A model generated the notes under the pieces. It was not told the DNA's origin. It saw only the letters and a program-made list of their open reading frames with translations, and did not search any database. The translations under genes were made by a program, and so were the position numbers. A stretch of DNA of 49,641 nucleotides from positions 30,647 to 80,287 of the forward strand of contig NZ_VLJN01000018.1 in assembly GCF_007829435.1 (NCBI RefSeq). Reading direction: 5' to 3'. This document shows positions 18,639 to 38,126 of this stretch, piece by piece (position 1 is the stretch's first letter; each line of letters starts with the position of its first letter). This DNA comes from Cupriavidus gilardii J11. Its GTDB lineage: Bacteria > Pseudomonadota > Gammaproteobacteria > Burkholderiales > Burkholderiaceae.

Positions 18639-18663
18639 TTTCCGGGGTTCGTTGGGGGTGTAC

Positions 18664-18780
18664 TCCCCTCAACCCCGCCCCTCTCCCGCGAGCGGGAGAG
18701 GGGAGAAAACCGGCGGCATATCGAACGCTCACTGTTCTCTTCCCTATCCCGCAAAGCGGGATAGGGGCGGGGGTGAGGGC
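18664..18780. repeat. Dispersed GC-rich palindromes, copies 2 and 3 in opposite orientation
   Basis: CCCCTCTCCCGC-GA-GCGGGAGAGGGG (18678-18703) with the CCCCTCAACCCC lead is followed by a variant, CCCTATCCCGC-AAA-GCGGGATAGGG (18742-18766), whose GCGGGGGTGAGGG tail is the reverse complement of the lead. Two units facing each other form a BIME-like pair between fumarase and murI. Confidence 0.85.
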
Positions 18781-18842
18781 ATTCCCAGCAGTCCCGCCAT
18801 TCCCGACCTCCATCCTCCCGGCCAATCCCGTCGCTATCCCGC

Positions 18843-28543: not shown

Positions 28544-28617
28544 TGGAGGCGGGGGTCGGAATCGAACCGGCGTACACGGCTTTGCAGGCCGCTGCATAAC
28601 CACTCTGCCACCCCGCC
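28544..28617 (-). tRNA. tRNA-Cys (anticodon GCA)
   Basis: A 74-nt tRNA with CCA. Acceptor GGCGGGG with CCCCGCC, discriminator U. Anticodon loop CTGCAAA gives GCA. The T-arm has GGTTCGATTCC. It is in the same direction as the two tRNA-Gly genes but has a separate terminator. Confidence 0.97.
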
Positions 28618-28695
28618 GGGTGACCCGGATGCTGGATTGTAGCGGTTCGTGCGGCATGGCGCCGGCACATGGCTACGTAATCCACATCGCAAACT

Positions 28696-28717
28696 AAAAA
28701 GGGAAGCGCTGCTTCCC
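28696..28717 (-). terminator. Hairpin after the tRNA-Gly pair
   Basis: GGGAAGC-AGC-GCTTCCC with TTTTT on the minus strand follows tRNA-Gly 2 and lies before tRNA-Cys. Confidence 0.75.
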
Positions 28718-28725
28718 TTTCGGAT

Positions 28726-28801
28726 TGGAGCGGGAGACGAGTCTCGAACTCGCGACCTCAACCTTGGCAAGGTTGCGCTCTACCAACTGAGCTACTCCCG
28801 C
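28726..28801 (-). tRNA. tRNA-Gly (anticodon GCC), copy 2
   Basis: A 76-nt tRNA with CCA: acceptor GCGGGAG/CTCCCGC, anticodon loop TTGCCAA, T-arm GAGTTCGAGACTC. The sequence is identical to the copy at 28851-28926 over its full length. Confidence 0.97.
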
Positions 28802-28850
28802 ATGATACCTGCTGCGGCGACCGGCTTTGAAACCGACGGCCAGAAAATTC

Positions 28851-28926
28851 TGGAGCGGGAGACGAGTCTCGAACTCGCGACCTCAACCTTGGCAAGGTTG
28901 CGCTCTACCAACTGAGCTACTCCCGC
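28851..28926 (-). tRNA. tRNA-Gly (anticodon GCC), copy 1
   Basis: A 76-nt tRNA with CCA, identical to copy 2. The two lie 49 bp apart and follow pgsA by 185 bp in the same direction, so a common transcript from uvrC-pgsA is possible. Copy number suits decoding of abundant GGC codons. Confidence 0.97.
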
Positions 28927-33872: not shown

Positions 33873-33910
33873 TGACGGGTTGAGGGGCGGCAGCGCTTAT
33901 TTGCTGTGAC

Positions 33911-33953
33911 TGCCCTCTCCCGCGGCCCCTCTCCCGCTTTGCGGGAGAGGGGC
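33911..33953. repeat. Dispersed GC-rich palindrome, copy 4
   Basis: GCCCCTCTCCCGC (33925-33937) and its complement (33941-33953) around TTT, preceded by an extra partial CCCTCTCCCGCG. The stem is the same 13-mer as in the copies at 17 and 18.7 kb. It lies between efp and nagZ. Confidence 0.8.
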
Positions 33954-33956
33954 GTT

Positions 33957-35036: not shown

Positions 35037-35467
35037 GTCTGGGAATGGGAAAAAGATACCGCACCGGCCTGCGGCCCGGTACGCTCGGCGATCGCGAACG
35101 CGACGCCGTAGTCTTGCTCGTCGCTGACGCTGACGCGCACGGTCAGGCCGCGCTCTTGCAGCCATTGCAGCAGTTCGCCATGGCAATGGGCATACGGCTC
35201 GCCCGACGGCAGGTTCAGCAGCTCCATCGCGCGCCACGTCATCGGCCAATGCATGCCAAGACCGATGGCCTTGGAGAAAGCTTCCTTGGCGGCGAAGCGC
35301 GTCGCGAGGAATGCCAGCCCACGCTTTTCGACGCGGGCCTTGCGGCGATGATAGATCGCCAGTTCCCGCGGCCCGAGCACCTTCTCGGCAAAGCGCCCGC
35401 CGGTGCGCTCCATGACCCCACGCACGCGATCGATCTGGATGATGTCGGTGCCGACGCCGTAGATCAC
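35033..35467 (-). CDS. acpS: Holo-[acyl-carrier-protein] synthase
   Basis: A 144-aa phosphopantetheinyl transferase that activates ACP. It starts at GTG 35467 ([10 protein letters not shown]), has the metal site GVGTDII, then [18 protein letters not shown] overlaps the pdxJ stop (GTGA, 35464-35467), and its own TGA overlaps the nagZ ATG. Being essential, it depends on this operon's integrity despite the upstream recO frame break. Confidence 0.93.
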
Positions 35468-36246
35468 GCGGGCGCCCCGGGCGTCGGGTAGCGCGAGCCC
35501 AGCCGCGCGGCGACCATGATCGCCTTCATCTCGCGGACCGCGTTCTGCCAGCCGGCGAACACGGCATGCGCGACGATGGCATGGCCGATATTGAGTTCGG
35601 TAATGCCCGGCAGCGCGGCGATCGGCTGCACATTGGTGTAGTGCAGGCCATGGCCGGCGTTGACCACCAGGCCATGGCGACGCCCCGCATCCACACCGTC
35701 GGCGATGCGGCGGAATTCGGCCGTCTGCTGGTCGGCGGAGTGCGCATCGGCATAGCGGCCGGTATGCAGCTCGATCACGGGTGCCCCGCTGGCGGCCGCG
35801 GCATCGATCTGCTCGTGGTCCGCATCGATGAACAGCGATACGCGGATGCCGGCATCGGCGAGCTGCCGGCATGCCGCCCTGACCTGCTCGAAGCGTCCGA
35901 CCACATCGAGCCCCCCTTCGGTCGTCACCTCCTCGCGCCGCTCGGGCACAAGGCACACGTCCTGCGGCCGGATCTCGCAGGCGATGTCCAGCATTTCCTG
36001 CGTCAGCGCGCACTCGAGGTTCATGCGCGTGGCCAGCCGTGGACGCAGCGCGCGCACGTCGGCATCGCGGATATGGCGGCGGTCCTCGCGCAGATGCAGC
36101 GTGATCAGGTCCGCGCCCGCCTCCTCGGCCTGCAACGCGGCCTGGATCGGATCGGGATAGACGGTGCCGCGCGCGTTGCGCAGCGTGGCGACGTGGTCGA
36201 TATTGACGCCGAGCGCAATCACACCGGGATGAGCGTGGAAGATCAT
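35464..36246 (-). CDS. pdxJ: Pyridoxine 5'-phosphate synthase
   Basis: A 260-aa TIM-barrel enzyme making pyridoxine phosphate from deoxyxylulose phosphate and amino-oxo-propyl phosphate. It shows [33 protein letters not shown]-like [18 protein letters not shown], and a C-terminal [14 protein letters not shown]. Start ATG 36246 overlaps the recO stop (ATGA). The family order era-recO-pdxJ-acpS is kept. Confidence 0.95.
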
Positions 36247-37195
36247 AGGGCTTGCAGGTCGATCAGGATCTGGCGCGTCTTCAGCGGCGCGCCTTGCAGA
36301 TAATAATGCAGCAGGAACCGCATCAGCGCACGGCTCTGTTGCGCGGTCTGTGCACGACTGTAGTCGTCGCGGGACATGTCGAGCAGCGTCTGCCCCGAGA
36401 CCACCGGCCAGGAAGACGGATCGCTGGCATGCGCGCGCCGCACGCCGCGCTCGGGCTGGTAGACGTAGTCCAGGCCCGGCTGCACCGGCTCGCCGGTGGA
36501 GGTGCAGCGGTCGAACGCCACGGCAAAACCGGTCTCCTGCAGCAGTACCCGTTCAAAACTGCGCAACACCAGCGCGGCCGGCTCGCCGTGCGCCAGTCGC
36601 GTCAACGTCGCCATGTAGTGCCGGAACAGCGACTCATGGGCATCCTCGCGCGGACAGAATCGCAGCAGCAGCTCGTTCAGATAGAAGCCGGACAGCAGCG
36701 CGTCGCCCGCCAGATGGCTGAAGCCGTCGTTGACGGCCTTGAAGCCCACCAGGTCCAGATGCAGCAGCGCCGCGTTGGCGGCATGCCGCCAATCCATTCG
36801 GCGCGCGTCAGCGTCTTGACCTCGCCCTTGCCGCTCCACGACAGCGAGATCGGCAGGAAATGCTGCAGCACCGCGCGCAGCGCCGAATGCGGCCGCTTCG
36901 CGCCCTTGGCGACCAGCGCCATGCGTCCATGGTCGCGCGTGAAGACGTCGATGATCAGGCTGGTCTCCCGATACGGCCAGGCATGCAGCACGAAGCCGGG
37001 CTGGCTGGCCACGCGCACCTCGCTGCGCGCCGGCACGATGCGCATCGCGCGGTCCATCATCGCGCGGGCGGCGGCCTCGGCCATCGGCTGGGTTTCCAGC
37101 ACCTCGGCGGCCTCCTCGGCCACCGGGTCGGCTCGTTTTGCGGAAGCCGGCTCTCGTCGCGCGGCGCGCGCGGAGGCCGGCGGCCTGTCACTCAT
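36243..37195 (-). pseudogene. recO: recO, DNA repair protein RecO, frame broken by a 62-bp insertion
   Basis: The N-terminal OB-fold part (start ATG 37195; [38 protein letters not shown], then [16 protein letters not shown]) is in one frame and ends at 36677. The C-terminal part ([33 protein letters not shown]) is in another frame. Removing 62 bp (36714-36775) joins GGMPP to LAGDALL exactly, giving 297 codons of ordinary RecO. Those 62 bp, read in the downstream frame, give [19 protein letters not shown], which resembles a GGDEF domain core. As written the gene cannot make full RecO. It overlaps era by 8 bp and pdxJ by 4 bp. A sequencing or assembly error is possible. Confidence 0.85.
36714..36775 (-). 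other. 62-bp GGDEF-like insertion inside recO
   Basis: Read leftward in the downstream recO frame it encodes [17 protein letters not shown], which fits D-x-D-x-F-K-x-x-N-D-x-x-G-H of diguanylate cyclases with two changes (D to V, G to S). The native recO continuation LAGDALL then supplies the G-D-x-x-L. Borders are inferred to within a few bases. Confidence 0.7.
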
Positions 37196-38126
37196 AGCCG
37201 TAGGCACGCAATCCGGCTTCGTTGTCGGCCCACCCGCTCTTGACCTTGATCCAAAGCTCCAGGTAGACCTTGCCGTCGAACAGCTTCTCCATGTCGAGGC
37301 GCGCCTCGGTGGAAATCTGCTTCAGCTTGCTGCCCTTGGCGCCGATGATCATGGCCTTGTGCGCGTCGCGTTCCACGAGGATGGTCGCGAACACGCGACG
37401 CAACCGGCCTTCCGTCTCGAACTTGTCGATCACCACGGTGCTGGTGTACGGCAGTTCGTCGCCGGTCCAGCGAAAAACCTTTTCGCGGATGATTTCCGAC
37501 GCGAGAAAACGCTCGCTGCGATCGGTCAGCGCATCGGCGTCGTACATCGGCTCGCCTTCAGGCAGATAGGGCCGGATGATCGCGAACAGGCGCTTGATAT
37601 GGTCGCGTGTCTTGGCCGACATCGGCACCACTTCCCGAAATGCAAACTGGTGGCCCATCTTCTCCAGGAACGGCAGCATGATGGACGACCGCTTGTCGGC
37701 TGGCACGGTGTCGAGCTTGTTGGCCACCAGCAAGACGGGCACGTTGCGCGGAAGCAGTGCGAGCACCTTCTCGTCGTCGGGACCGTACTGCCCCGCTTCA
37801 ACGACGAACAGCACCAGGTCGACCGACGACAGCGTCGACGTGACGGCACGGTTCAGCGAGCGGTTCAGGGCGCTGGCATGGCGGGTCTGGAAACCGGGCG
37901 TATCGACGAACACGTACTGCGCATCGTCGGTGGTCTGGATGCCGACCAGCCGATGGCGGGTGGTCTGCGCCTTGCGCGATGTGATGCTGATCTTCTGGCC
38001 GACCAGCGCATTGATCAACGTCGACTTGCCGACGTTGGGCCGCCCGACGATGGCCACGGTGCCGCAACGGAACGCCGCGGGCTGGGGTTGGCCGGCATCT
38101 TGCTGCGGGCGATTCGATTCGGTCAT
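37188..38126 (-). CDS. era: GTPase Era
   Basis: A 312-aa GTPase for 16S rRNA and 30S maturation. G1 GRPNVGKS is at 28-35, G3 is VDTPG, G4 is NKLD, and the C-terminal KH domain has [25 protein letters not shown]. The first 20 residues are a short extension. ATG 38126 overlaps the rnc stop (ATGA); its own end overlaps the recO start by 8 bp. Order rnc-era-recO as in E. coli. Confidence 0.95.

What the first reader, a model, noticed from the sequence alone, without database searches (positions are those of the whole stretch)
36714..36775. recO is broken by 62 bp that resemble part of a GGDEF domain
Seen directly: RecO's two halves are in different frames, and removal of these 62 bp joins GGMPP to LAGDALL and restores 297 uninterrupted codons. 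In the downstream frame the extra bases encode [19 protein letters not shown], a close match to the D-x-D-x-F-K-x-x-N-D-x-x-G-H core of diguanylate cyclases. Native recO then continues with AGDALL, which is also how a GGDEF core continues. This suggests transfer of a short patch from a GGDEF gene through shared AGDALL coding sequence (template switching or gene conversion). If real, the strain lacks RecF-pathway RecO, or keeps a split one.
Basis: partly seen in the sequence, partly recalled or inferred. Interest (0 to 1): 0.8.

Follow-up and report, generated by a model that had tools for sequence, protein, structure and literature searches.

The report
recO split by copied GGDEF-gene patch
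In this bacterium, most likely a Cupriavidus, the DNA-repair gene recO is interrupted by a 62-base copy of part of an unrelated signalling gene from the same genome, a natural example of a small templated copying accident.

Summary
The window is most likely Cupriavidus (relatives named). recO (minus strand, 37195-36243) is split by 62 extra bases, 36714-36775. All 80 relative loci in which both halves were found lack them and keep one frame across the junction. The source is in the same genome: window 36693-36780 matches a PAS-GGDEF-EAL gene on contig C11 at 88 of 88 bases. Eight homologues of that gene reach at most 63 of 88; the best listed match in other genomes is about 80%.

One edge is a stretch that both genes probably shared beforehand: 17-20 of its 21 bases match the donor in 29 relatives' recO, and it was the best 21-base match between the genes in 4 of 4 relatives scanned. 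The other edge shares 4-5 bases. This fits one-sided illegitimate recombination or template switching. An assembly artefact is unlikely but not excluded.

No other recO was found. RecR, RecJ and DprA are present. RecF was found in none of 36 genus genomes, so RecOR is probably lost. This is a clean natural case of a known mutation class; a self-reinforcing mutator is possible but untested.

The parts
36714..36775 (-). 62-bp net insertion copied from a GGDEF-EAL gene; shifts the recO reading frame
36693..36713 (-). 21-bp stretch shared by recO (codons LAGDALL) and the donor gene; the presumed homology anchor
   Evidence: 17-20 of 21 bases match the donor in 29 of 29 aligned relatives
36776..36780 (-). 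4-5 bp shared at the other junction (4, or 5 if the base at 36776 is native)
36776..37195 (-). N-terminal part of recO (RecO_N); its start overlaps the end of era; its frame runs on through the insert to a stop at 36677-36679
36243..36713 (-). C-terminal part of recO (RecO_C), open to its stop but in another frame
37188..38126 (-). era, intact upstream neighbour (gene name recalled from the protein)
35464..36246 (-). pdxJ, intact downstream neighbour (gene name recalled from the protein)

Best explanation
A single, probably recent mutational event copied 62-88 bases of the genome's own PAS-GGDEF-EAL gene (contig C11) into recO. A donor strand, or a nascent recO strand that switched template, paired through a stretch of about 20 bases that the two genes already shared (LAGDALL codons) on one side, and was closed at 4-5 shared bases on the other. 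The net 62-base gain shifts the frame and separates the two domains of RecO, so the strain probably makes no working RecO; in a genus where RecF was not found this would mean no RecOR loading of RecA. Shown: the insertion in this assembly, identity to the own-genome donor, a native LAGDALL-like stretch in relatives' recO, absence of the insert from relatives, no second recO found. Inferred: annealing or template switch as mechanism, recency, loss of function.
For: 88 of 88 bases identical to the own-genome gene. Eight homologues of the donor from other genomes give at most 63 of 88, and the best listed matches to the patch in the 59 other genomes are 81% over 79 bases and 79% over 87. 80 of 80 relative loci with both halves lack the insert. 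The junction 21-mer of uninterrupted recO is the best match to the 2.6-kb donor gene in 4 of 4 relatives scanned, 20 of 21 in L006, the best-scoring relative. TIGR00613 finds only the two pieces in the genome. The neighbours era, rnc and pdxJ match in 6 of 6 loci over full or nearly full length (pdxJ 258 of 260 in L043), lepA in 5 of 6 (L036 ends before it), so the region is not generally decayed. A short homologous anchor at one end with microhomology at the other is how PMC4437187 describes homology-directed illegitimate recombination (passage seen).
Against: No reads, second isolate or PCR are available. The 4-5 base edge is no more than chance could give. The longest exact match between relatives' recO and the donor lies in register at the junction in only 6 of 29 relatives, and in L010 the junction 21-mer beats the next unrelated placement by one base. 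Classical HFIR in the laboratory used longer anchors and foreign DNA (recalled). Whether the C half is translated is unknown: the starts at 36839 and 36797 have no Shine-Dalgarno pairing (0.3 and 0.7 kcal/mol), but one at 36749 scores -3.0, and pdxJ itself scores only 0.1.
Confidence: 0.82

Rival explanations
1. Assembly or library artefact: chimeric reads joined recO and the GGDEF gene through their 21 shared bases.
For: There is a 21-base exact match at one junction, and the genome is a draft in 66 contigs.
Against: The chimera would need a second switch back into recO at the adjoining native base with only 4-5 shared bases, 62 bases away. The donor ORF is itself intact on C11 and four neighbouring genes are intact.
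Confidence: 0.07
2. The patch came from outside (DNA of another cell) rather than from the cell's own chromosome.
For: HFIR and SPDIR are named as recombination processes of bacterial transformation (PMC7192050, passage seen), and dprA is present.
Against: Identity is complete to the own gene; the best listed matches in 59 other genomes are 81% over 79 bases and 79% over 87, and eight homologues of the donor reach at most 63 of 88. An outside donor must have been of the same or a nearly identical lineage, which cannot be told from the own chromosome.
Confidence: 0.1
3. A working split or frameshifted RecO: both domains are made separately and complement each other.
For: The break lies between the Pfam domains RecO_N and RecO_C. 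Both halves remain open, and the C half is 92% identical to that of C. gilardii L037, about as conserved as era at 90%. A possible start at 36749 scores -3.0 for Shine-Dalgarno pairing.
Against: Conserved halves are also expected of a recent break. The two upstream starts of the C half lack Shine-Dalgarno pairing. No test for frameshift sites was run.
Confidence: 0.08

Closest known systems
Homology-facilitated illegitimate recombination (HFIR; [quoted passage not shown]
   Same: One junction at a homologous anchor, the other at a few shared bases.
   Different: The anchor is about 20 bases, shorter than those I recall from laboratory work, and the matching donor is the genome's own gene.
[quoted passage not shown] Harms et al. 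2016, not held, recalled; named in a passage of PMC7192050)
   Same: A short patch, of intragenomic origin, joined at short shared stretches, giving a micro-indel.
   Different: One side shares about 20 bases, longer than a microhomology; the mechanism itself was not tested.
Replication template switching / microhomology-mediated break-induced replication (recalled)
   Same: Would leave the same templated insertion.
   Different: Cannot be told from strand annealing by sequence alone.

Membership tests
HFIR | Homologous anchor at one junction | tested here: met
   20 of 21 bases in L006, 17-20 of 21 across 29 relatives; best 21-mer between the genes in 4 of 4 relatives scanned
HFIR | Microhomology at the opposite junction | tested here: inconclusive
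   4-5 shared bases, no more than chance could give
HFIR | Anchor as long as in laboratory systems, and foreign donor DNA | tested here: inconclusive
   The anchor is about 20 bases and the matching gene is in the own genome; the laboratory anchor length is recalled only, so I call this HFIR-like, not HFIR
SPDIR | Short ectopic patch, intragenomic or extragenomic, making a micro-indel (definition recalled) | tested here: met
   62-88 bases identical to C11
SPDIR | Both junctions at microhomologies (recalled) | tested here: inconclusive
   One side 4-5 bases, the other about 20
SPDIR | RecA-independent single-strand annealing at replication (recalled) | not testable with these tools
   A mechanistic property that needs genetics
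RecO | RecO_N and RecO_C in one reading frame | tested here: not met
   Both domains are above the Pfam cut-offs but in different frames

The most novel reading that the evidence does not exclude
The recO break was made by the very kind of event that RecA-loading functions such as RecOR restrain (that they restrain it is recalled, from Acinetobacter). The lineage may therefore have become a heritable mutator for short templated insertions, with further such patches elsewhere in its genome.
Probability: 0.1. Interest if true: 0.8.

Novelty: new member of a known kind. Interest (0 to 1): 0.5.

Why it matters
Short templated insertions with one-sided homology are known to me mainly from laboratory selection (recalled). 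Here donor, target, anchor and both junctions can be read in one natural genome. The gene hit is a recombination mediator which, as I recall from Liljegren et al. 2024 (not held), suppresses such events in Acinetobacter. It also suggests that a Cupriavidus lineage may live without RecOR in a genus where RecF was not found.

Tried and rejected
Second recO copy in the genome: not found. Insert shared with a relative: 0 of 80 loci. Donor from another species: eight homologues reach at most 63 of 88 (these are 8 of the 11 loci from other genomes that one search returned, L101-L103 were not compared), and other matches reach about 80%; that call's list was cut. Further exact patches in the window: none in three own-genome searches that together cover all 49641 bases, with only the best 40 candidates of each scored; the rest of the genome was not searched for patches. 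General decay of the region: four neighbouring genes matched relatives, lepA in 5 of 6 loci.

Literature. Eight searches. Searches gave no paper, one. Passages only were seen in PMC8116780, PMC5312590, PMC7192050, PMC13344027, PMC3240628 and PMC4437187; PMC9166356 had no hit for recO in its main text. One search listed 10 of 110 papers, and its term for recO also matches other words, so it says little about recO loss in Cupriavidus. Harms 2016 and Liljegren 2024 were not held under the DOIs I recalled and are cited from recall. Natural competence, replication direction, frameshift sites and structure prediction were not examined.

Full report
Observation. On the minus strand the window holds a cluster that reads as lepA, lepB, rnc, era, recO, pdxJ, acpS and nagZ (names other than recO are recalled from the protein sequences). 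ORF 36677-37207 carries RecO_N and ORF 36243-36839 carries RecO_C, in different frames. In a DNA alignment 29 of 29 relatives lack the same 62 columns, window 36714-36775. tblastn with the two halves apart gave the same spacing and frame in 80 of 80 relative loci in which both halves were found: 29 unnamed and 51 named, sets that may overlap. Two more of the 53 named loci matched only the N half, and in L048 the C-half match covers residues 1-119 of 156. In one search, 34 of 35 same-genus genomes had both flanks without the insert: 29 are the aligned loci, five (G009, G017, G018, G023, G024) were read from the table alone, and the one without a recO match (G012) is 54% complete.

Donor. A search of the same genome found a 95% match over 102 bases on contig C11, of which 88 are consecutive and identical (window 36693-36780). 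They lie in an 861-residue ORF with PAS, GGDEF and EAL domains. The donor gene has matches at E <= 1e-30 in 12 of 40 genus genomes, the own one included. Eight of the 11 loci returned from other genomes were compared and reach at most 63 of 88. Other GGDEF matches to the patch reach 81% over 79 bases (G002) and 79% over 87 (G029). None is near identity, so the patch came from this lineage's own gene or from a nearly identical sibling. Complete identity suggests that the event is recent (inference).

Junctions. The recO side of the 88 bases contains 21 bases that code for LAGDALL in both genes. Relatives' uninterrupted recO match the donor there at 17-20 of 21 bases (29 relatives). For the four relatives in which all 21-mers were scanned (L006, L009, L010, L012) this was the best match between recO and the whole donor gene, in exact register; the margin over the next unrelated placement was one base in L010. 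The longest exact match alone is less telling: it lies in register at the junction in 6 of 29 relatives. The opposite junction shares four bases, or five if the base at 36776, which differs in most relatives, is native. The transferred tract is thus 62 to 88 bases.

Mechanism. A homology anchor at one end and microhomology at the other is how PMC4437187 describes homology-directed illegitimate recombination (passage). Short-patch double illegitimate recombination is named as a related process in PMC7192050 (passage). Annealing of a donor single strand and template switching of a nascent strand would leave the same product, and I do not choose between them. An assembly chimera would need two switches, one of them at 4-5 bases; it is unlikely, but without reads it is not excluded.

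Consequence. TIGR00613 finds only the two pieces in the genome (the N piece is over the cut-off, the C piece one bit below it there and just above it). RecR, RecJ and DprA are present above their cut-offs. RecF is not over the cut-off here (best 32.4 bits against 172) and was not found at E <= 1e-20 in 36 of 36 genus genomes, this one included and 42 candidates scored in each, while the same search rings in 9 of 14 control genomes. So the genus seems to rely on RecOR, and this strain has probably lost it. A split RecO is possible because the break lies between the domains. Two of three candidate starts of the C half have no Shine-Dalgarno pairing, the third (36749) has some, and the neighbouring pdxJ scores as low as the first two, so this argument is weak either way.

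Context and novelty. Searching the whole window in three pieces against the own genome found no other exact ectopic patch. Four neighbouring genes are intact. The event belongs to a known kind of mutation; its interest lies in how completely it can be read, and in the target. I recall, without having been able to read it, that RecFOR and DprA suppress such micro-indels in Acinetobacter baylyi (Liljegren et al. 2024). Whether this lineage is now a mutator for such events is open.

Noticed in passing
18644-18815: A partly palindromic repeat of about 130 bases with dozens of matches across the genome, in both orientations, at 75-85% identity.
   Followed up: no
33877-33956: A short GC-rich palindromic repeat (about 50 bases, dozens of matches at 80-98% identity) just after the gene that reads as EF-P, next to a terminator-like stretch.
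   Followed up: partly
28544-28926: A tRNA-Cys and two tRNA-Gly(gcc) genes; a 91% match to the tRNA-Cys on contig C8 suggests a related second copy.
   Followed up: partly
G000 and 35 other same-genus genomes: RecF (TIGR00611) was not found in any of the 36 genomes searched.
   Followed up: yes
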